DNA of 64,000 nucleotides, from the NCBI GenBank assembly GCA_951799445.1, contig OX637295.1, positions 26,350,001 through 26,414,000 of the forward strand, in the 5' to 3' direction. Source of the stretch: Pseudisothecium myosuroides (taxonomy: Eukaryota > Streptophyta > Bryopsida > Hypnales > Lembophyllaceae). The translations under genes were made by a program, and so were the position numbers. Of the stretch, positions 191-51,915 are shown in pieces (positions within the stretch are counted from its first letter, which is position 1; every line of letters begins with the position of its first letter). The notes beneath the pieces were generated by a model that did no database searches, had not been told where the DNA came from, and was given only the letters and a program-made list of their open reading frames with translations.

Positions 191-3100
191 TTTGTTCAAA
201 GGCCTCTTGTAGGTGACCATAGTTTTGTACATGGTAGAACTATTTTATTTTATTATTTTCATATGTTTGATTGCCCTACAACCTCGCTTGGGTGTATACA
301 GGGAGCATTTTGTTCTCCATTTGGATGAGGGAGGTAGTCCCCTATTTAATTGTTTTTGGTAGGTGAGGAGATTTGTTTGTTCGTATTTGTATTGGAGGGT
401 AATGATGGTTCTATTTTTGTGAGAAGCAAATAAAACTTCTTTTGTAAAAGTGAGCAATTTCAATTCACGTTTTTAGAACAAAAGGGCTTGCAAAAGGGAT
501 ATAGGTGTTTTAATTTCATAGGAACTATAAGTTAAACTTGTTTATTTGCATAGGTTTGAATAAAATCTTGGCAATGACACTCATGGACGATAAATGGAAG
601 GTCAATGGATGAAGTATGCTACAATCAAGACAAAAAAGGGTCACTGTAAATTTGATCAATTGTCATCCATTTTAAAAGACCAACAATCTTGGATCTAACT
701 TGTATAATTTCTAATGGTGATTGCTATAATAGAAAGGACTTTGGAGTTTGTAGAACCAAAAATTCCCTCAAAAGTTTGTGCAAGGTTGGAATAGCACATA
801 AATACGTAATGTAGAAGGTGAAGAAGTTGGAATTCAATCATTTGCAACAATAATAGAGACATTCAAGGTTCCAAGGGGTGTAGGAATAGTGCAGATGTTG
901 TATTGTGGAGTAGAATTCATGTTTGTATTGGAAATTTATGAACCTATATGTTGAAAGTTTTCAACTTATAAATTGAATTTTATATAGATTGTAATCCTAG
1001 TTATTCAATACTAAATAATGTAATGAGTCATATATTAGCACCTTTTTGTTATTTCTATGGAATTATAAGTACTATTGGAGTTGGTGGTTAATCATGGAGA
1101 CTGCTAAAATATTAATGGAAGTGATATTTGTATTGTAATGGCATACCATTGTCCACGTTTGGCAATTGTTGATAATATGTAATTGCTAGTTGGTTTGAAA
1201 ATGTAGAAACAAGCCCATTGCTAGACCCTAATTACAAGGTTTCGTTTTCTTATGCATGCTAGTGCAATCGAGTCATGACAAGGAGGACCTTAGCAATCAT
1301 AAAAGACCATTTTTACATAAATCAAAGTCTTATTGTACAATTTAGAACATGAGTAGTGCACTTGGCAAAATACAAAAATGCTTAATTTAATGTTATTAGT
1401 GGTAATTTGCTCAAAAAAAATCCACATGTCTTTGAAATGTAGGGTCAAAGATAGCTCACATGATAAAAAAGAACCTAGATGGGCCAGTTATGCAAACAAA
1501 TCAAGATTGGTGCAATTTCTTTAGGGAAAAATCCATGCTTCAAAAATCTTTTGTAGACTTACATTATAGGATTGTTGTAAGAAACAATGACCATTTTTGT
1601 CTCAAAACGACTTATTTGAATGAATATTGTGACCTCTGAAATATTTTTTTTTAAATAAAATAAAATATGGATAATATATAAAGCATTGAAAATAGTGTGA
1701 CTCTAAAATTCAGACCTAAAAAAAAATTCTCTAAAAGTTATGCACAAAAAAAAAACGACAAAAAATGCCATAAAAATGGACACTTTGATTTTAAGAAAAT
1801 TTAAAAAAAAAAAAAATTAAAAATTCATTTTTACTAACTTGAAGGTGCTCCTTCTTAATCATTTTCATCTTTAGAGAAAAAATGGTGTTTACTGCACTTA
1901 CGCAAAGGAAATGCACTTCAAGCACATGTGAAAAGTGGACAATTTATTATTTTTAGAAATCTCTTCATGGATTTTTGTAACTTTAGTAGAAGTCCTTGTC
2001 TCCCAATTTTGAACTTAAAATTTTCATTTTTGGGTCATCAATAGTACTAAACCCCTCGAAAATGGCTAAGGTAGACATGCAATTGGGAGATGTTTAAAAA
2101 CATTTAAGACATTTTTTTTAAATGCAAAAATCACTCAATGTCTACAACTATCATATGTACCTTCATTTCAAATTTTATGTAAAATCGACATACGACTCAA
2201 AAGTTTTGAGCAAAAAACCACCTTCCGAAGATCAAGGGGACAAAGAAAAGGACAAGTGTTTCTTGCAATCACCCCTTAAGTGTTCAAAATGCAGCATGGG
2301 AAATGGAAGGTCCAACCATATATGTATATGAGGTCATTTGATAGATATTTTTAAAACATGACTAATATCAAAATCATGTGCGACCAAAAAATGGTTGCAA
2401 AGATTGAACAATCTAGGGTGAGTTTGTAAACCAACAAGCACATGAGTGATGTATCCAATAATTATGCTTATTTATCAATATTGGATAGATATACAACATA
2501 AACAATTTTTACAAAGTTGTAAAAGTAATTTTTTCTTATAAATATATTAGTAGTTTCACATTGGCTAGGAAAAATCTTCAAACTTGACTTCCAAGTGTAC
2601 AAGGCATGGGCGGTCCTATTGCAATCTATTCAATTGGTCTATTCTTCAAATGTTGGAGAGGAGAAATTCACTAAATATTTTACGAGGATAAAAACATGAA
2701 GCATTTATTGATTTTGTTACATTTGAATGTAGTACTCATAGTACTACAAGATTTTGGAAAAAAAAATTTAAGTGAAATAAAATATGGATGATTACTTGAA
2801 TATAAAAGATAATGTATTCTAAAAAAAAATCTAAAAAAAGAATCTCTTTGTGTTTAACTTTTTGTCCCAAAGAACTCTTCAACAATCATCCTATTTAACA
2901 ATTTCTTAATTAATAAAAATCGTTTAAGAGAAAATCCCTAAATTATCAACATAAAACATTTTAAATTTGAATTTATAATGCTATGGTTTTAAGCTAAGAA
3001 GATTTCCAATCTGGTAATCTAATCATAGAAGGTGCAAAAAAACTTGTTTTCCTTACTATAAACACAAATATGTTGAAATCTACATCATCAAAGTTTCTAA

Positions 3101-3840: not shown

Positions 3841-5559
<1,719 letters not shown>

Positions 5560-8639: not shown

Positions 8640-10060
8640 AATTTCAGTATCTTTCTTCCGTGAGTCGGAATGTCACAAAACAAAGTCCATGCATCCCTCC
8701 TTGTTGAGGGCTTTCCAATGGTACTAAGAACACGACCTGGGGATGCATTGTCTAGGAGATCTCATTGTAACAAATAAATAAATAACCTCATTTAAGGTTA
8801 CTAGTATGCCTTGTGTAAAATCAAAATCAAAATCAAAATAATTTTCTAATATTTTAGTTCATAAGAAAAAATTGAAATTCAATAACTTTCACACGGTGAG
8901 TCGAAATGCCACGAAACAAAGCCCGTGCATCCCTCCTTGCTAAGCGCTTTCTGACTGTACCAAGCATGCGATCAAGGGACGCACAATCCAAGAGATCTCA
9001 ATGTAATAAAACAAAACAAAGCGCCAAACTTAAAGTATGTTAATAAGAGATAGTATGCCCTTGGCCGTTACCTCAACCAAAATAAAAGTAAAAATATTTT
9101 CTTAATTTTTTAACTTTTATAACTCCATACCTTAAGTTAGGTTGTTTCTTTGTTTTGTTTTGTTCATTCATTTGTTACGGTGAGATCTCCCAAATTATAC
9201 ATCTCCTAGTCATGTTTTTAATACCATTGGAAAGCTCTCTGCAAGGAAGGTGCACGGGGTTTATTTCATGGCATTTGGACCTATAGTGTGAAAGTTATTG
9301 AATTTCAAAAAAATTATGAATTCAATAATTCAAAAATTATTTTTATTTTTATTTTGACTATGGCAATGGCATAGGGCCCACTAATAATTTTGAAATTCAA
9401 TATTTATTGTGCATGAAGGAATCCAAGGGCTTTGTTTTGTGGCGTTTGGACATGTGATCTGAAAGTTATGGTTTTTTCAAAACAAAACATAATTTAATTC
9501 AATTTTCCAAATTCAATAACTTTCACATCATAGGTCCAAATGCCACAAAACAAAGTCTATTCACCCTTTCTTGTGAAGAGCTTTCCAACAATAATAAGAT
9601 AGCCCCCAGAAGATTCACAATTTCTTAGATCTCAACATATCAAACAACCAAAATAAAACAAAATAAAAGTAAAAATAAATTTTTAATGTTTTAATTTATT
9701 AAAAAAATGAAATGCAATATCTTTTATATGCAATTGCAAGGACTTTGTTGCAATGTAAGAGGTTGTTTTCATGATACAAATAGAAAGCTTTATGAATGAA
9801 AGAGAGCAAAGGCTTTGTTTCATGGCATTTGGACATACAATGTGAAAGTTATAGATTTTCCAAAACAAAAGATAATTTAATTCAATTTTTTAATTTAAAA
9901 ATAATTCGAAATTTATAACTTTCACACCATAGGTTCAAAATAATGCCATGAAACAAGGTTTGCGCATGAAGAATTTTCCAACGGTACCAAGAATGCGATT
10001 GGAGGACTCACATTTTTTTAGATCTCAATGTATCAAACAAACAAATAAACAAAATAAAAC
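8640..10060. repeat. Cluster of about seven diverged repeats in mixed orientation
   Basis: A unit of about 150 bp reads AATAACTTTCACAC..GTGAGTCG, then ATGCCACGAAACAAAG, then GCTTTCC..GTACCAAG, then AGATCTCAATGTA, ending in A/C-rich AAACAAA. Recognisable copies lie at about 8640-8790 (+), 8876-9020 (+), 9170-9310 (-), 9405-9490 (-, partial), 9510-9650 (+), 9770-9860 (-, partial) and 9910-10050 (+). Copies are clearly diverged, and A/T-rich linkers separate them. No coding potential is seen. Confidence 0.8.
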
Positions 10061-15168: not shown

Positions 15169-15771
15169 CTATTCTTCTTGCAAGCCGGTCAACACTATGC
15201 TTCCTATGAACAAAGCCCCGGCGCCCGCCAAGCAAAGCAAACTCACGGCATTCTGCAGCACCAAGAGGGCAGTGGAATCGTCGGGGACGAAGACGGGGAT
15301 GGCGATGGCCAACACAATGAGAGGGAGCGAAAGGGAAGCCAACGCGGCAGGACTAGCGGTCGCGAAATTCTCAGCAAGACTGAGCAAGCCGAGGTCCTCC
15401 GCCTTGGACAAGAGACCGAGCTTCTCAATTTGCGATAGGCTAATGCCGAGGCTCTCGGCTTTGCTGAGGAGACCCGCCTTCTCCACTTGCGACAACAACT
15501 TCTTCTTCTCCAGCTTCCTCACGATGTTTATGGGCTCCGTCTCGGTGTTCTCCGCGAAAATGCCCGCCCCGAACCACTGCTTGCTCCACCCGTCATCGTA
15601 CGCGTTCACCTTCTTCTTGGGCGCCATGGCTCGCACCTGGACTGGCTTCCGAGCGGGCGGACACATCTTCTTGTCGCGCACCAAGCCATCGCCCAGCTTC
15701 TGCATGGAGCTGCAATTCGCCGAGAAGCCCAGCGCCTGAATTCCGACTGCAGTTTGAGCCATGGCCGCCAT
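15169..15771 (-). CDS. RIQ: RIQ-like (DUF1118) chloroplast thylakoid membrane protein
   Basis: A single-exon gene of 200 residues. Arabidopsis RIQ1 and RIQ2, the known DUF1118 proteins, affect LHCII organisation, grana stacking and induction of non-photochemical quenching. Residues 1-48 are rich in Ala, Ser, Lys and Arg, as in a chloroplast transit peptide, ending near KPVQVRA. The central part has a repeated amphipathic motif: KLLSQVEKAGLLSKAESLG (91-109) and QIEKLGLLSKAEDLGLLSLA (114-133). Two hydrophobic segments follow, about 142-163 and 167-195, so the mature protein likely spans the thylakoid membrane twice. The start is the first ATG; a second ATG lies four codons on. Codons are GC-rich compared with the flanks. 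Antisense frames over the same bases are shadows. The family call is from memory of the LLSKAE repeats. Confidence 0.88.
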   Translation of the reverse strand: MAAMAQTAVGIQALGFSANCSSMQKLGDGLVRDKKMCPPARKPVQVRAMAPKKKVNAYDDGWSKQWFGAGIFAENTETEPINIVRKLEKKKLLSQVEKAGLLSKAESLGISLSQIEKLGLLSKAEDLGLLSLAENFATASPAALASLSLPLIVLAIAIPVFVPDDSTALLVLQNAVSLLCLAGAGALFIGSIVLTGLQEE

Positions 15772-16140
15772 AGCCGTGGTCTGTCAGCCTTGGAAAAAAA
15801 AATCAAACAGCCCCTCAGAATTCCACGGCAATCCACATCTATCTCCAACAGAGACGCCGAAGTTGGCACACACAAGCACACTCCGAATCTGCACAACCAG
15901 TAGTCGCCCGCTCGCACTGACCACCAGGATAATGATTTGCTCCCTATTTCCGTCGTCGTCAAATTTCTTGTGGTTGGATTCAAGTCTCCTTGCGAATGGG
16001 TAGGATTCCAAGGCGCAGGCCACCCGGCCAAGAAATTCGATTCGATATCCGAATCCTTATCAGGTCCTCAACCGGGTCCTCATCCAAGTCCTCAATCAGG
16101 GAGCGGTCCATCAAGACCGAACGCCCAGGAACCCTAAGGG
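15772..16140 (-). promoter_or_regulatory. Upstream region of the RIQ-like gene
   Basis: GC-rich DNA immediately 5' of the RIQ-like start on the minus strand, expected to hold its 5' UTR and promoter. No TATA box or light-response motif is convincing. Near 16060-16105 the words GGTCCTC(A)..AAGTCCTCAATCAGG recur as a short degenerate tandem. Confidence 0.35.
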
Positions 16141-19354: not shown

Positions 19355-25547
<6,193 letters not shown>

Positions 25548-26985
25548 CCACTTTAGACTATGGTGGAGAAGTGCACCGGTCGGTCAAGAAGCTTTGGCCA
25601 AGACATGGTTATTTGAGGCAACCAGGGGGATGTTGGACAAGATGGAAAGACTATAAAATAATGCCTTAAGAAGCCTCGACCGGTCGTAGTGTAAACAACA
25701 ATTGGATAAGTTTTCCAACAACTTCACAAATTGAAGTTCATCGGACAACAATTTCCATGGACATATTTTGTACGTTTGGGGTTGCAATGAATTTTGAGAA
25801 GCTATAACTTTTGCATCCGGTGCTCAAATTCAATAAAACTTATTAGAAAAAATATGCAAATATGCAAATATGCAAATTCAATAAAACTTATTTGGAAAAA
25901 TATGCCTAATTGTCATATTTGTGTGGTAATATTTGACATCAATCTATTAGGTATCAAATTTGAAATAATCATTTAAGTACATGGGGTTCAATTTTGGTTC
26001 ACCAATTATAGTTCTTTCACATTGCTTCACAAGCCTTTTCATTATTTTTCCATAAAGATGAGTAAACAAGCTCCTTATACAAGTAGGGTGGTAGGAGGTA
26101 AATAATCCCTGTGGGATATATAAATAATGATTAGTAGGAGCTGAACCACTCATAGTGAAGTCAAAAACAAAGATTGTGTTTGAAGTAGAATTTCAAACCT
26201 AATTTAGGCTTAGTAGATTATTATTTATTTTTAACTTTAAACTAATTTTTTAGGAAAATAAGTCTTAATTTCATATCCAAAAATCCAATTAAGATTTTTA
26301 GCCTCCTATGAAAAGTTACACCCAAATTTTAGAGAGGGGTTGAAAGGAACATTTTCTTTGACATTTTCAAATGTCCTCTGTGAATTTTGTCCATAAATTT
26401 TGATTGAAGTTTCAAACTTAGAAATGGATTTTTAAAGATGGAATTTAGCTTAATTTATTAGTTTTTCTTAGTTCAAAAGGTTTTTGAAAATAGTTATTCT
26501 ACTATGTTTAAATGAGGTCTGAAATTCTACTTCTGATGGTGAATTTGTAAATTTCAAATAGAATTTGTAAATGTCAGAGTTTCTTGTGATGGTGAATTTG
26601 TAACTCATAGCAGAGTACTAGTTCTCAGTTACAAATCACGAGGGTTGTGCATGGCATGAGAGAGCAACAAGAAAGAGAGTCTATCCAATAAGATTAGTCA
26701 CAAAAAATAATAATTTAGTGATGTGGGAGTTCTCTGGAGGCAAATTTATAGTGGAATGGTTCAGGCTGGCTGAGAAACTTAACCTCCGGAGAACTTCCAT
26801 TACAGAAAGTGTTGCCATGTAGGCATCTATGTCATCTTTTCATCCATGCTTAAGGTTCTCCAACATACAAGTCTTGGCCGTAGTGTAAACCCAATCTAGT
26901 GAAGAACAAAATTTGCTCCAATCATATTGCTCCATTTCCCTACAATTCTTGACCAGTGCACTTCTCCACTGTAGTGTAAAATTGC
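25548..26985. mobile_element. Segment bounded by inverted repeats, probable DNA transposon
   Basis: The left end reads GGGCCACTTTAGACTATGG then TGGAGAAGTGCACCGGTC. The right end, on the opposite strand, reads GGGCAATTTTACACTACAG then TGGAGAAGTGCACTGGTC. The pair encloses about 1.4 kb with no ORF. The words GTAGTGTAAAC recur inside near 25690 and 26880. Target duplications are not convincing, so the superfamily is open. The interior contains repeat family C. Confidence 0.55.
26065..26400 (+). repeat. Dispersed repeat family C, copy 1
   Basis: The stretch from GGGTGGTAGGAGG through TTTAGGCTTAGTAGATTA to AAATGTCC..TTTTGTCCAT is repeated in the same orientation at about 48735-49015, inside the large CACTA element. 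The following part (about 26440-26540, TTAGCTTAATTT..CATTCTACTATG type) is seen again at about 56743-56830. Confidence 0.6.
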
Positions 26986-34846: not shown

Positions 34847-37800
34847 ATGGCGATGGTAGGAGCTTGTTTTCAAAGCAAGAGCGTCACGCAGGTTGCTGGC
34901 AAGAATCGAAGTGATGAACATTGGTGAAGATAGATTTCGGGGTGGACCATTATTGTAGTAGAGTCCTAAGAAGTGGAATGCCGGTGAGCAAAGCCTCATT
35001 TATAGCCATAAGTGCAAAATTCTCTCCTCTATTGTTGCCACTGTTGTTGCTCTTCACTGTGAATTCCTAAATAAATTTGATGTGAAAGGAGCTGGATGTG
35101 AATGTCGGATTTATGATTTCCACGATGATTCAATCACGTTTTGGGCATTATCATGGATTCTTTAATGAATGTGTTGCTTTGAATGTTGCAGGGATGTGTC
35201 GGGCCCAAGGCTCGGAGGCGGATGGGAAGAAGAGAGTGCTGGTAATGGGAGGAACTAGACGAGTGGGAGGTTCTACTCTTTGTGCTTTGGCTAGAGAAGG
35301 CGACCTTCATTTACTTATTGGTGGCCGCAACATGTATTGTACACATGCCATTGACTGCACGCCCTTGATTTAATCTTAAACCTTTGACGAGAATGCGGAT
35401 CAATAGTTGTGTATATCTTGTAATTTATGATGAATTTAGTGTTAATGTCCAAAATTTCATTGAAACCAATTCCTACTCTTTCACCACACATGTTTTTTGT
35501 CACTTGCGTAGAGAGAATAAATGTCAGTTACAGAAGATTATTTCTTGCAATTTTAGAAACGTTGATTATGTAAATGGAGTCCACAAGAAAGAAACCAACT
35601 TTCTTACAATCTGAAAGAAAATCTTGCAATCATTCTGCGTAGTTGGTGTGGGATTAATATGTGGTCAATGGCAATTTTATCCTACTACAAAGACCTCTTT
35701 GTTGCATTTCTGTTGGATATCATTGTATGTGCTTTCAAAAAATGTTTTGTCAATCTCAATGCTGTGCGCTTCAGGGAGAAAGGAGAAGCTATGGCTCGTG
35801 AGCTAGGTGGCAGCGTGGAGTTTTCGAGCTTCGACATGGACGATGCATCAGCCCTAAGAACCGCCATTGATGGTCTGGATTTTTGACTAACTTGGATACT
35901 TCATCATGATCATTTCAAGGTTTTACTGTGAAATTAATTCAATTTTTCAATCACAACGATGGGGTCTCCTTCATGACATACCAACTTTCAATGTGCAGAG
36001 GTAGATTTGGTGGTGCATGCTGCAAGTCCTTTCCAGCAACGATCGGAGTGCGCAGTCCTAGAGGCAACAATAGATACTAAAGTAACCCTCCTACTGATAA
36101 AACCTTCTTGTGAATGTTTTCAGAAACCGGTGGCATTAGATTTATTATACATTTTGCAGATGTCGCAGCATAGAGTAAGCGAATTCCCTGTTATACTCCC
36201 AAAAACCACTTTAAAGCATAACAAAATGACTCTAAAGATCGAACCCACGAGATTCTGTGAAGTGTCTAGCATTATTTCCAACTTAAGCTCAGCCAGTATC
36301 CAATTCCTACATTCCGGTCCTAGATCTAAAACCGGGAACAACAACACACCGAAAACAACGACCAGACCTCTCTCTATTTCTTCCGGTCTGTCAAGCTATT
36401 CGGTCCCGTAAAACTTCCACAACCCAGGATCCTAACACTTTTGATCCTGGAACTCCTCTGGACCGATCCGATCCGGTCCTCACACACGTACTCTCACTCC
36501 ACTCCGGTTTAGTTTAGCCTCTGTTTCACCATCAGAGGGTTCGCCGCTTGCTTTTGAGAGTGGCAGGCCCGCCACTCCTTTCGTGACTTATAGTGGCTGA
36601 AGACCCACTTCTCTAATCCACTACTTCCTACACTAGCGCGGATTCGGTTTGATCTCTCACAGCCACCCGGACAGCGAACCGGTTTGCAGGTCACACAAAG
36701 ACCCCCCGTATGATCCTCTCATACTACAACGACCTTGATGCCAAGTTCCCTCCGTGCGGAGTTAGGTGGTTACAAGTGAACTCGTCCGTTCCAACATCAA
36801 CTAAAGTTCTTCCGTTTACCAACTAGGGCAGCGAGACCTTACGGGAGATCGGGCACTCAACCGGATTTCCTATCCAGGAGTTCTAGCGCGTTTAAGGACT
36901 CCTTCCCTATCCGCCTAGCCTAACAACGGTTTTCTCACCCGGAATTGTGAACTGTAGAGGCGCTGAGGAACTGAAATCCGCTCCCAACACTTAGAAAACC
37001 CACTCACATGCACATAAGAGCAAAACAAACACACCAAGGGGAGAAATCTCTCTAGAATCTGCATACATTTTCCTAACTCCTCACCAAAACAGCCCTGCCA
37101 CGCGCGGGAGAGACGTACAACAAGAAATCAATAGAAAATGCATGAAAACTCAAGGGAAAAGACTCCCAGTCTCCTTTGCAGAGACTGACTATATACATTT
37201 TAAAACTCAAAAAGTCAACATAAAGCGGCCCGGAAAGTCCGCGCGGAACTTTCGGTCCTTGTCGAGCCGGCCAGACCGGAAAACATCCGATCCAGACCAG
37301 GCACATCCGGATCAAATCCGGTCTGGTCCTAACTAACAAATATTTACAACTAAAATCCTAACTACCCTACCATAACCGGATCTACTCCTTGATCCGTTCC
37401 TTCGTCCATGACTTCGTCTTCGCCTTGGTGCACGCTCTGTTCTTGATCCTCACCCTGATCTGGGGTCAGATCCATACTTTGATCTTTCCCCGGGTTCAGT
37501 GTGGGACTTCTAGGCGGGTCCGTTCCAAGCTGCTCGAAAACGTCCGTCAGGTTCCGGTTCCGCTCCCCTGTTTCACGTTCTGGGAGATCCGGTGACGAAT
37601 CCAGGTTGATGGTGTGCGCGAGTTTCCTCCCACTCTTCTTGGACTGGGGAGTCCGATCCTTTCCTTCCGTTGGAATGCCCACGTTCGGAAAAGATCCGGG
37701 CATTGAAAGGTCGGACAGATGGAACGACCGTGACAACGTCACTCCGTTCAGCTTCCTGCTGCTCTCCTCCATCCGGTTTGCAGCCTCTCGCGCGTCCATC

Positions 37801-40800
37801 ATGACTAACTCCACCTTTTCGGAGTAGTCTGTCAAAATCCGGACCAACCTGGTCCCGGATATCTTATTCTCCTTGAGGACTCCCTCATCAAACAACTTTG
37901 ACTTGGTGATGGCCTCTCCGGTTGCTCCGAATGTGGCCTTCACGTCCTCCGCTACTTTCCGGGTAGCCTCTGCCATCTCCCGGGTGGTAGCCATGTCCTC
38001 CTTGAGGAGCAACATTTCCGTCTTCAACGACTCGTTCTCCTCCTGGAGTCGTCGGATCTCCGCCTCTTGCTTCCGGATCTCATCCGGGCTGGAGATAAAA
38101 TCTGCAACCACTCCCGCCAGGTTGCTGTTTACTGGTGCTCCCACCAGCTCGCTGATCTGATTCAGAATCAACTTCTTCACCGTCCAGTCTGCTCGCACAT
38201 CACTCAGGATGTTGACCAGCTGGTTGAACGGATCCGTCGGATCCGATCCGGAAGGACCCGGTTCTTCAGAAACCGGTTTCTTCCCTGGGCTGGAGGTCTC
38301 AACCGGAGGGGTTGGGGTTCCTCTCCGGTTAGGAGGCGTCGTCTTCTGCCGCTTGTGCTGCGGCCGGTGTAGCTCCTCCTCTTCCTCTTCTTCCTCCTCG
38401 GAACCGGATACTTCTTCCTGTTCTTCTTCTTCCGATTCCGATTCCCCATATTTCAGGAGTGACTCATGCATCTTCCACTCCTTCTCCTCCGTATCCGTGA
38501 GGAGTTGATTGTGCTTGTACAGATGGACGAGGTAGGGACTCAACGGAGTCGGTCTACTTCCTCCGATCTTCGGAATTAGCCGGTTGACCAGGTCGAACAA
38601 AATCCTGGCCCAGTCCACTTTCCGTTCCCCGCTCAGGGCTCCGAAAATGAGGTTCCCGATGGCGATGGTCACCCTTGTCGGCTTCTCCGGGTGGATGATC
38701 GGAACCAGGAACTGGAGAAGGTTCCGATGCCGGTCGTCCAGACAATCTGCCACCGCGTGCCCATCCTTGGAGTCCACGTTGCACCGGAATTTCCCCCGAG
38801 TGTAACCCTCCTTCGAGGAGGCCATCCCTCGACCTCCAGACTGGAATTCATACACGGCCTTCCACATCTCCTCCGTCCAGTTGCCCGGACTTCCGCGGAG
38901 AGTTCTCTCAAACTGGTTGGAGAGCTTTCCGAGTAACTCTCGAATCATCTGCTCCTCCCTAAACCCCCAGGGTTTATCGATCAGTCCTCCGCAGCCCATT
39001 TTGGCCAAATCCTCCATCAGGTTGTCCTTTTCCTTCTCGTCCGTTGGAATAACCGGACACACCTTCCGGAGTTTTACTTCTGCTGCGGAGGAACTGGACG
39101 GCCCTACTCTACTCTTACGGAGCTGAGGCATGGACACGAACTGTGCTAACCGGATCCTGACTGTGGCTACCTTTCCCTCTCCTAGCCGCACGTCCCGTTT
39201 CTCACCTTCGCTCTTCCGATCTCAACCGGAATACCTCTAAACCTGCAACGCACACTAAAGCGCTGCGCGCCCTAACACACTAACACGCACACACAAACCA
39301 ACTCAAAATAAGAAAGCAAAACGCTGGGAAGAGAGGCTAAGTACGCGCTGGAGCGAGATTTCCGCAAATGAAGATTGAAAAAGAGTGGCCACTGGATTGG
39401 TCAGCCCATATATAGTCTAATCTGTCATCATGACCAAATCCATTCTTGACCCATTCCGATCCAACTCAGATCCGTTCTAACTCTAATCCGGTTCAGATTC
39501 AGATCAAATCCGGATTGTCATCTATTCTGTTCCATTAGTTAATTTCCGGTTATCGGTTACCTCCTACTTGAATCCGGATCCCAGATCACGGTTTCCGTTC
39601 CAAGATTTAGATAACTTACAAAAAACCAAAAATTTACCTTGCGACAGCAGATGTTTCATTTGTTGAATTGTGGAATGCGCAAGTTTTAAGCTTTGTAATG
39701 GTTCATAGGAAGACAATGCTACACAATGAATGTTGTTCTTGTAATCATGGCTATGCAGACACCGTATATTGATGTGTATGACGACCAAGAGTATTCAGTG
39801 CGTGCCAAAACTTACCATGAGAGAGCCATGGCAGCACAAGTTCTAGCCATTACAACTGCGGGAATCTACCCCGAAGTCAGTAACCAAATGGGTCCTTTCA
39901 ACAGACCGATTACTCATTTCCGCTTATTCTAATGGTTACTGGTCATATTCTGTTAGGAATTCAAGTACATACAAAAACATAAATATCACTCTTTGTTATT
40001 TCAGCTTTGTCCAGACTCATTCCATGAACCCTTGCTTGAACTAAAATAGAAACCCCCTTTTTAAAATCATAATAAATAATATTAACTCTTCCAAATTTTC
40101 TATGCTACTCAATAATATGGAGCATTTTTTCTTCTTTCTATTGCTATTCTTCTTGCTCATACTCTTTCTAAATGATTACCAACTAATAATCTGGGTTTTT
40201 CAAATCAATGGGAGCCTTTTACGGGTTGATGTAATCGGTGTCTTGTCTGCACAGAGGTAAGTGTTACATACTTACAACTTTGATTTGGATTGTTCAGTCA
40301 TGGCTGCAGAGTTGGTGTGCTTGATTGGAAAACCGAAACAAATCCGATAGGCTGCCTCCCTCTCTCTGTGCAACCTTTTTGGAATCTGATTATTGAAACT
40401 AGCATCAGAATCCGCGTGAAGTCGTAGCTTCAAGTTGTCAAGCATAAATATTTGAGGAGAATCGTCATTACAAGAACGTATATGGGTCAAAATGAAGTAT
40501 TAGGAGCCAACTTGGACTGTAACCAGTGCTTTGTTTGAACCATTATTGATTGTGTAGCTCAAAATTATTAGATCTCTCCAAAATAAATATGCTTCATGTT
40601 TCATAAGTATTATAGTGTCATGTTACACTATTATTTAGTCTATGATGTCATCATTTCATCTTAATTAAGTACAAAAAACCTCATGTAACCAGTACTTTTT
40701 ACTCTGTTGAATTTTAAATTAGATGATTTAGAAACTTTTCCATTGAAATTGATGATATTTTGGATAGAAGTTGTCATTGTGGACAACTTTGAACAATTTT

Positions 40801-43788: not shown

Positions 43789-44794
43789 CGTTTCGTTATA
43801 ACGCAACAACAAAATTGCGATACCCCGTTCTCAACACAATCTTTGAGGTAATTTTTGACAGCATTTGAGGCCTAGTGGCAGCTTCTCTTAGTGCAAGTTC
43901 AAGCATATAGTATTTATATCAATTAGTATTTATGAAGTAATTGATTTCAAATGTACACATTCTGAGATGGACAAGCTTTTCATACTTTGTACCAATGGAG
44001 CAGTGGCAGCATATCGGTCATTACTTTCACGTGTATGGGCAGCTACTGCTATCACCCAAACGTAAGCACCTGGGATCCATAGCAGTTTAATTTCTTGTTC
44101 AACTACTGACAGGTAGTTGGCAATTTATGTGTATCTACATTATCATACCATACTCTGGAAACGTTTATATCATAGTAGTGAATAAGTTAGTACAAAGGAA
44201 TGATGGACAAATGAAAAATAAGACTTGCAATTCTTTGCTTGTATGAGTGAGGCTGCAAAAATTGTCCGAAAAACATCTTTAATATTGTTAGTATGACGAG
44301 CAGGTCATGGTTTCGAAGACAATTGTCAATTTCATGCTCATTGGCGATGACGCGGAGAACACTATCATCACTATCAATAGGAGCGTTGCCAAAATCCAAA
44401 ACATGACTACATTTGCCTCGACTTTGCTCGGTAAGTCACTTCTCCTGTCAAATTTACACCCTTGGAGGTCCCTGGAGTACTGCACAATACAGTGTGCATA
44501 CAATTATTATGAATTGTAGATCAAATCCAGTTCATGAGCGCCACTTTTATAACTCAATACTTTTCCAGTTTTGCAAAGCAAAGGTTTCATAGGAAAGCCT
44601 TCACAGCACGTAACACGGCAAGTGCTGAAGGCCACCAAGTAGAGCGAGTGAGTGCAGACCTCGCAGCATTATACCAGTGCACCTTCGACAGCTTCCAATC
44701 TCTTGTAGTGGCTAAACACCCATGGGAAACAAACTAAAGATAGGACTCATGATGACGGGCAAAAGAATCCTATTCTCGAAATCAATTGTAAGCC
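43789..44794. other. Intergenic stretch
   Basis: The first part is likely the 3' UTR of the saccharopine-dehydrogenase-like gene. The remainder has overlapping short frames (44187-44503 minus, 44307-44519 plus, 44534-44737 plus) without recognisable product. Confidence 0.45.
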
Positions 44795-46005
44795 CTAGCT
44801 TTTGAAGGCCACCAATGCCCAAAAGTACATGTAGAACTCTACAATTGCGCTCCAAAGGGCTAAATTCCTCACCATCAAAGTTTCACAAGGTACATTTGGA
44901 TTCCACTGTAGAGTAATCTTGTTAAAATCTGCATCAACACACGAAACCGTGCCCGTGCCTACACCCCATGCATCTCCTCGTAAGCCAGCAAAAGCCTCCA
45001 ACGATTCGTCGTCTTCATCACAAACCTCTCCAGCTTTGGGTGAGGGGGTGAGGTCGGCCCGCTTATACACAGTGGTACCATCTTCATGTAACCATAGTTG
45101 TCACATTAGACGGACTGTCCGCCCAAGCCGTCCGATTTGCCCGTCTACCTAGGACGTCCAATGACCCTAATCTGCCCAATGTAATTACTTTGAGGTAGTT
45201 ACATTAACCGTCCGGTCCGTCTAAACCGTCCAATGTGTCCGCCCGTCTAAGACGTCTGGTGATCCTAACTCGCCCAACGTGACAACAATGCATGTAACAG
45301 GCACACTTGGATCGGCCTATAGAAAATCATATCGGTTCGGTAGTCGCCCCAACCCAAGACACTGGCTTTCTTCTCCTCCTCCAATTGCAACTGCAAGGCC
45401 TTCCTTCTAGAAATGACTAACTCAAGGTGGCACGCCGAATCGATCACCAACTCTGCCGGGATTCGAATGATAGGTTTCACTCTATCATTCACAATCCAAG
45501 ATCTGCAACTAAGGAACTTGGGCTTCCCTTTCTCCTCAACTACAAGACAAAAGGAAAACCCACCTCCTCTCTGAGGGAAGACCATGAACTCATAATTTCC
45601 AGGTTGAAGCAATTTCATATTCTTCATAGAGTGCTTGGTCCCTTACTCAAAAATACATCCAAAGGCGCATTTCATTAATGCGCAGACCTCTTCATAGGCA
45701 ACATCAAATGAAACACTCTTGGCATATGAAACAATCAATGGTGGGGGATGCTCCTCTGTATCCATGGCATAAATGTATACCCCCTTTTCGTGCCGTTGTC
45801 GCTTGGATGGATCTCCAACAGAATTAGCTGAAAGGGCCTTTCGCTCAAGATGTTTTTTTGCAATCTTGTCCCACTCCTTCTTCCATTGAGCCCGCACTTC
45901 GTCCTCTTCTTCTACCTCTCCATTGGCCCCTTCAACCTCCACCACCTCTGACTTGACTTCTTCACCAACTTTGACTTGCACAACGACAACATCATTTGGT
46001 GCCAT
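44795..46005 (-). pseudogene. Unrecognised intronless ORF broken by a stop and a MITE
   Basis: Reading starts at ATG 46005 (MAPNDVVVVQVKVGEEVKSE), with an acidic region and a basic helix (WKKEWDKIAKKHLERKALSA), then GVYIYAMDTEEHPPPLIVSY. A TAA at 45643-45645 interrupts, after which the same frame resumes with MKLLQPGNYEFMVFPQRGGG and a long protein-like stretch to LEEEKKASVLGWGDYRTDM. At 45291 the frame is cut by a 198-bp MITE plus its 8-bp target duplication (206 bases). Past it the coding text continues (EDGTTVYKRADLTPSPKAGE) and runs to a stop at 44795. Removing 206 bases leaves exactly the same frame. The protein, about 330 codons, is unknown to me. Lack of introns may mean a retrocopy or a transposon-carried gene. 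Confidence 0.6.
45093..45290. mobile_element. 198-bp hAT-type MITE with 8-bp target duplication
   Basis: The element begins CATAGTTGTCAC and ends with the inverse GTGACAACAATG. On both sides stands CATGTAAC (45085-45092 and 45291-45298), an exact 8-bp target duplication as produced by hAT transposases. The interior has no ORF and many GTCCG/CCGTC words that can pair with each other. It lies inside a coding frame of the pseudogene 44795-46005. Confidence 0.88.
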
Positions 46006-48734: not shown

Positions 48735-49015
48735 CAAATGGGGTGGTAGGAGGCAAGACAAACCATGTGGGATATGTGAAACGCAGGAATTGTGTTATAA
48801 GTAATATTTTAAACCTCATTTAGGCATAGTAGATTAATTTTTTTCAAAAATCTTTGAACTTAAGAAAGTTGGGAAATCAACCTCACTTTCATCTCCAATA
48901 ATCCATTTTAGGTTTTGAGCCTCAAATCAAAAGTTATGGACAAATTTGAGAAAGGGATTGGAAAGGATATTTTCTTTTGAAATTTTCTAACATCCTTTCT
49001 AAATTTTGTCCATCC
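48735..49015 (+). repeat. Dispersed repeat family C, copy 2, inside the CACTA element
   Basis: Same order of words as 26065-26400 (GGGTGGTAGGAGG, TGTGGGATAT, TTTAGGC.TAGTAGATTA, ATTTTGTCCAT). Its position inside the transposon suggests that the CACTA element captured a fragment of older repeat DNA. Confidence 0.6.
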
Positions 49016-51674: not shown

Positions 51675-51915
51675 TTAAAGGTAATATGGTGAGTGCATTG
51701 TAAACACTCTTGGTTTCAAAGCATTCCCACATCTTTAAAGGTAATATGGTGAGTGCATTGTGAACACTCTTGGTTCCAAAGCATTCCCACATCTTTAAAG
51801 GTAATATGGTAAGTGTATTGTGAACACTGTTGGTTCCAAAGCATTCCCATATCTTCGGAGGTAATATAGTAAGTGCATTGTGAACACTCTTGGTTCCAAA
51901 GCATTCCCGTATCTA
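51675..51915 (+). repeat. 60-bp tandem repeat, four copies
   Basis: The unit CTTTAAAGGTAATATGGTGA (then GTGCATTGTGAACACTCTTG and GTTCCAAAGCATTCCCACAT) repeats with an exact period of 60 bases four times, drifting slightly. A degenerate fifth part lies near 51975-52035. Copies abut with no spacers. The period is a multiple of three, so an open frame with a 20-residue repeat appears on the minus strand; nothing suggests it is expressed. Confidence 0.92.

What the first reader, a model, noticed from the sequence alone, without database searches (positions are those of the whole stretch)
45085..45298. A hAT-type MITE sits in a coding frame, and removing it with one target copy restores the frame exactly
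The 198-bp element with CATRGTTGTCAC-type inverted ends and an exact CATGTAAC duplication interrupts a protein-like minus-strand reading. On one side the text ends IQVCLLH; on the other it resumes EDGTTVYKRAD. The insertion adds 206 bases (198 + 8), and both flanking frames are identical once these are subtracted. The exact 8-bp duplication suggests a fairly young insertion, so alleles without it may exist.
Basis: seen in the sequence. Interest (0 to 1): 0.75.

Follow-up and report, generated by a model that had tools for sequence, protein, structure and literature searches.

The report
Small DNA transposon inside a pseudogene
A 198-base jumping-gene remnant with hAT-like features has landed in a gene copy of unknown function, probably of a plant; the insertion is real, but the gene copy is also broken in two other places, so this is ordinary transposon biology.

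Summary
A 198-bp element (45093-45290) has 12-bp inverted ends with one mismatch and an exact 8-bp duplication, CATGTAAC: the only such structure in the window, none in 100 shuffles. It carries seven GACGG motifs; 6342 other sampled 198-bp stretches have at most two. This fits a non-autonomous hAT-type element (MITE).

An independent intact protein, P0002 (362 aa), matches both flanks and runs straight across the empty site, so removing the element plus one duplicate does give the ancestral frame there. No GT-AG intron fits.

The copy also has a premature TAA at codon 121 and a frameshift near 44858-44870 relative to P0002. It is a pseudogene with at least three lesions, whose order is unknown.

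Copy number, a mobilising transposase and empty alleles were not testable: the genome search did not complete, and no hAT domain was found among 108 window ORFs. The gene family is almost unsampled (two relatives) and has no credible Pfam, NCBIfam or PDB-sequence match. Verdict: a new member of a known kind, of low interest.

The parts
45085..45092 (.). left copy of the 8-bp target-site duplication CATGTAAC
45093..45290 (.). 198-bp non-autonomous element (hAT-type MITE), ends CATAGTTGTCAC / CATTGTTGTCAC, imperfect fold-back, no ORF of 60 aa or more wholly inside
45093..45104 (+). left terminal inverted repeat CATAGTTGTCAC
45279..45290 (-). right terminal inverted repeat CATTGTTGTCAC (1 mismatch to the left one)
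45291..45298 (.). right copy of the target-site duplication CATGTAAC
45299..46005 (-). 5' part of the interrupted gene copy (starts MAPNDV), with a premature TAA at 45643-45645 (codon 121)
44858..45092 (-). middle part of the interrupted gene copy, resumes LHEDGTTVYKRAD
44712..44870 (-). 3' part of the gene copy in another frame (EFSPLERN...SLFPMGV, stop at 44712-44714); the frameshift relative to P0002 lies near 44858-44870

Best explanation
A non-autonomous cut-and-paste DNA transposon of hAT type (MITE, 198 bp) inserted at CATGTAAC within a gene copy read on the minus strand, duplicating 8 bp. A hAT transposase encoded elsewhere would have recognised the CATWGTTGTCAC ends and the repeated GACGG sites and integrated the element with an 8-bp stagger. 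The insertion adds 206 bp, shifts the frame and brings in a stop. The gene copy belongs to a little-sampled protein family of unknown function and is a pseudogene: it also has a premature TAA and a separate frameshift. Shown: structure, duplication, colinearity of the empty site with an intact relative, the other two lesions. Inferred: hAT membership, the trans-acting transposase, binding to the GACGG sites. Unknown: the order of the lesions.
For: Exact 8-bp duplication plus 11/12 inverted ends, the only such place in the window at that stringency and absent from 100 shuffles. Seven GACGG, both strands counted, versus at most 2 in 6342 other sampled 198-bp windows and at most 3 in 1000 letter shuffles of the element. 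Element halves are inversely similar beyond the 12-bp ends (score 3.0; 0 of 500 letter shuffles reach it), and the single strand folds better than most shuffles (z -2.24; 5 of 200 as good). The intact relative P0002 matches both flanks and crosses the empty site without a gap: E 2.2e-177; 271 of 313 aligned residues identical; 74 of 80 around the junction. No GT-AG register. hAT transposons have short ends and 8-bp duplications (PMC3942097 and PMC10741241, passages); Ac/Ds carry subterminal AAACGG repeats, and Ac transposase binds the hexamer (PMC3260210, passages).
Against: No second copy of the element was seen: the window holds none, and the genome search did not complete. No hAT domain among 108 window ORFs (short exons would be missed). 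The ends differ from the Ac end C/TAGGGATGAAA (PMC3260210). CATGTAAC does not match the Buster duplication consensus nnnTAnnn (PMC3517528). The GACGG motifs are not mirrored at the two ends: six of seven lie on one strand. Bare CGG is not unusual: 161 of 6342 other windows have as many. One of the nine removal registers has AT...AC ends.
Confidence: 0.85

Rival explanations
1. The element is a miniature transposon of another superfamily that also makes 8-bp duplications (P-type is the main one I recall), not hAT. The insertion story is otherwise the same.
For: The ends begin CAT rather than the CAG/TAG of the hAT ends seen in papers here (PMC3260210; PMC3517528). No transposase was available to decide.
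Against: Short 12-bp ends and repeated ACGG-type motifs resemble Ac/Ds (PMC3260210 passages). Mutator-type elements have longer duplications and ends (recalled).
Confidence: 0.12
2. The interval is an intron of a working gene (for example an AT-AC intron) rather than a disruptive insertion.
For: Removal gives the sequence of a relative. One register has AT...AC ends.
Against: 0 of 9 registers has GT...AG, and no TTCCTTRAY-like branch site lies in the last 68 bases. The exact 8-bp duplication and inverted ends are unexplained by an intron. The copy has two further lesions.
Confidence: 0.03
3. Chance: an 8-bp repeat and an inverted 12-mer fell together by accident in a region whose two readings happen to be open.
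For: The end pattern alone with one mismatch is near chance level: 15 of 100 shuffles have at least 2 matches. With 2 mismatches allowed, 35 of 200 shuffles contain a similar structure.
Against: At the observed stringency the combined structure is absent from 100 shuffles, and P0002 independently shows the uninterrupted sequence.
Confidence: 0.01

Closest known systems
hAT-type MITEs and Ds1-like non-autonomous elements of plants
   Same: Short length, 11-12-bp inverted ends, 8-bp target duplication, ACGG-type repeats (AAACGG in Ac/Ds per PMC3260210 passages; GACGG here).
   Different: End sequence differs (CATWGTTGTCAC versus C/TAGGGATGAAA). The GACGG motifs are mostly on one strand. No autonomous partner or second copy could be looked for outside the window.
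Mar, a hAT (Buster) MITE of Drosophila (PMC3517528, passages)
   Same: 11-bp ends, 8-bp duplication; the short canonical Mar has no coding capacity.
   Different: Mar ends are CAG(G/A)GGTAGGC and its duplication consensus is nnnTAnnn; neither fits here.
P0002, intact 362-aa protein of unknown function
   Same: Same family as the interrupted gene: 271 of 313 aligned residues identical, colinear across the empty site.
   Different: Uninterrupted, no premature stop, no frameshift. About 13% different in protein, so more likely a paralogue or an orthologue in another species than an allele.

Membership tests
hAT-type MITE | 8-bp target-site duplication | tested here: met
   CATGTAAC exact, 45085-45092 and 45291-45298
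hAT-type MITE | short terminal inverted repeats (5-27 bp per PMC10741241) | tested here: met
   12 bp, 11 of 12 matching
hAT-type MITE | end sequence of a known hAT family | tested here: inconclusive
   CATWGTTGTCAC is not the Ac or Mar end; 5 short strings from the ends hit 6 papers, none about such an element judging by the listing; no repeat library was available
hAT-type MITE | repeated subterminal transposase-binding-type motifs | tested here: inconclusive
   7 GACGG against at most 2 in 6342 other sampled windows, but six of seven on one strand and binding not testable here
hAT-type MITE | no coding capacity, short (MITEs mostly under 500 bp per PMC10741241) | tested here: met
   198 bp; no ORF of 60 aa or more wholly inside; stops in all three minus-strand frames
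hAT-type MITE | many copies in the genome | not tested
   own-genome search did not complete; no other copy in the window
hAT-type MITE | mobilising hAT transposase with the same ends | not tested
   genome not searchable; in the window no hAT domain among 108 ORFs
spliced intron | GT...AG ends in a register that keeps the protein | tested here: not met
   0 of 9 registers; one register AT...AC without a TTCCTTRAY-like branch site

The most novel reading that the evidence does not exclude
The element represents an undescribed hAT lineage with CATWGTTGTCAC ends and GACGG sites that is still active in this host, and the insertion is a recent, segregating one in a lineage-restricted gene family whose decay is under way.
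Probability: 0.15. Interest if true: 0.3.

Novelty: new member of a known kind. Interest (0 to 1): 0.15.

Why it matters
It is a clean, relative-supported case of a MITE insertion in coding sequence with its empty site. It is useful for annotation, since a gene finder could split or mis-splice this locus, and it gives a defined set of ends and repeated motifs with which to look for the mobilising transposase. It does not challenge any known mechanism.

Tried and rejected
Copy number in the own genome: the genome search did not answer in any of eleven tries. Copies elsewhere in the window: only one 14-bp and one 13-bp match. The end pattern in viral contigs matched 9 stretches; BLAST of the element against them gave only 11-19-bp matches, so I take these as chance. 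P0002 relatives in viral and prokaryote contigs: none of 6 and none of 66 pattern stretches was confirmed.

Naming the interrupted protein: Pfam gave only matches below cut-off (best E 0.048 for a window piece; 0.078 for P0002); NCBIfam gave none for P0002 at E up to 1; PDB sequences gave none at E up to 10. By eye the stretch IPAELVIDSACHLELVI...LLGIGGLQKLGLTIDF recalls a retropepsin-like protease, but that is recall only, and a Pfam scan of that region found nothing at E up to 5. The structure model of P0002 is useless (mean pLDDT 32.6), so no fold search was made. No close direct-repeat pair of LTR type brackets the gene copy in the self-comparison of the window; one far pair that brackets it is 26173-26394 with 48789-49013, 75% identical and over 22 kb apart. 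Rfam: no match in the window. Paper searches: one gave nothing; the rest gave the listings, from which five papers were read in passages only.

Full report
What is there. The stretch CATGTAAC occurs at 45085-45092 and 45291-45298, with 198 bp between. The inner ends are CATAGTTGTCAC and, on the other strand, CATTGTTGTCAC: 11 of 12 positions agree. The base outside each copy of the repeat differs between the two sides, so the duplication is exactly 8 bp (read).

Chance. The end pattern alone, with one mismatch, is not remarkable: 15 of 100 shuffled windows have two or more matches. The combination is. An exact 8-bp repeat flanking 12-bp inverted ends with at most one mismatch, 50-1500 bp apart, occurs once in the window and in none of 100 dinucleotide shuffles (repeats with fewer than three different bases were left out). 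If two mismatches are allowed, the window has three such places and 35 of 200 shuffles have at least one, so the rule must be kept strict. The repeat finder at default settings saw no inverted pair in 44900-45450; the longest exact run shared by the two ends is 8 bp.

Anatomy of the element. The two halves are inversely similar also inside the 12-bp ends (score 3.0; 0 of 500 letter shuffles reach it). The single strand folds somewhat better than shuffles (z -2.24; 5 of 200 as good). GACGG occurs seven times, both strands counted; among 6342 other sampled 198-bp windows the largest count is 2, and in 1000 letter shuffles of the element it is 3. Six of the seven are on the minus strand and one on the plus strand, so they are not mirrored at the two ends. 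Bare CGG is not unusual: 161 of 6342 other windows reach the element's 12. No ORF of 60 aa or more lies wholly inside. The window has no second copy.

The interrupted reading. Removing 206 bases joins the two minus-strand readings in one frame. This no longer rests on open frames alone. A protein search with the joined reading (premature stop as X) returned one protein at E up to 1 among 1211 candidates: P0002, 362 aa, E 2.2e-177, 85% identity over 94% of the query, known from 8 contigs of at most 4619 bases. An earlier search with the 5' piece alone gave one protein among 4 candidates: P0001, a 79-aa piece from a 578898-base contig, 81% identical over 47% of the query. P0002 aligns to the window in three consecutive pieces, 45930-45292, 45091-44858 and 44870-44715; a fourth match at 43077-42934 has E 0.25 and is taken as chance. 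Its first residues also align with the window's MAPNDV start. Around the junction 74 of 80 residues are identical and there is no gap. Over the part in one frame 271 of 313 aligned residues agree.

A pseudogene with three lesions. Relative to P0002 the window copy has a TAA at 45643-45645 where both relatives read Q, the insertion, and a frameshift near 44858-44870. The copy runs from 46005 to a stop at 44712-44714, and the comparison with P0002 calls for no intron. Which lesion came first cannot be told here. P0002 is about 13% different, so it is probably not an allele; it shows the uninterrupted form of the site, not that empty alleles segregate.

Not an ordinary intron. Because of the duplication there are nine registers in which 206 bases can be removed to give the same joined sequence. 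None has GT...AG ends. One has AT...AC, but its start does not look like the U12-type site that I recall, and no TTCCTTRAY-like branch site is present in the last 68 bases. No RNA data were available.

What the element is. Papers read in passages give hAT elements short inverted ends and 8-bp duplications (PMC3942097; PMC10741241) and Ac/Ds elements subterminal AAACGG hexamers, which the Ac transposase binds (PMC3260210). For four hAT-encoded CGG-binding-type proteins, binding motifs match the subterminal regions of their elements (PMC8097297, passages). The element here fits that pattern, with GACGG in place of AAACGG, but its end sequence is not that of Ac or of the MITE Mar (PMC3517528). 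The hAT label is therefore likely but unproven. P-type elements, which by recall also duplicate 8 bp, are the main alternative.

What could not be tested. The own-genome search did not complete (eleven calls), so copy number and transposase are open. No hAT domain was found among 108 window ORFs of 76 aa or more at E up to 0.01 (108 of the 163 stretches listed were given, and short exons would be missed). The gene family has no match above cut-off in Pfam, none in NCBIfam for P0002 and none among PDB sequences. A third protein search with a two-row profile found only P0002 again (7992 candidates scored, the list being capped). The host is probably a plant: a window ORF at 15172-15783 matches DUF1118 at E 6.7e-46, which I recall as a chloroplast protein family of plants; the species is unknown.

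Noticed in passing
window 15172-15783 (-): 204-aa ORF matching PF06549 DUF1118 (E 6.7e-46), by recall a plant chloroplast protein family; the best clue to the host.
   Followed up: no
window 37362-39221 (-): 619-aa open frame with no Pfam or NCBIfam match above cut-off; by eye it could be a retroelement gag-like ORF.
   Followed up: partly
window 9512-9856 and 8764-9181: Two weaker candidates for elements with exact 8-bp flanking repeats (TTTCCAAA; GAGATCTC) and 12-bp ends with 2 mismatches. Shuffles give such structures too (35 of 200), but the first has a 12-bp exact inverted match just inside its ends. Both lie in a repeat-rich stretch.
   Followed up: partly
window 1575-2273 and 21401-22134: Inverted repeat pair of about 750 bp at 74% identity, probably two copies of a dispersed repeat.
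   Followed up: no
window 51675-51908: Tandem array of a 60-bp unit, 3.9 copies, 93% matches.
   Followed up: no
window 4115-4447 (-): 111-aa ORF with a weak glutathione S-transferase C-terminal match (PF16865, E 0.00022, below cut-off), perhaps one exon.
   Followed up: no
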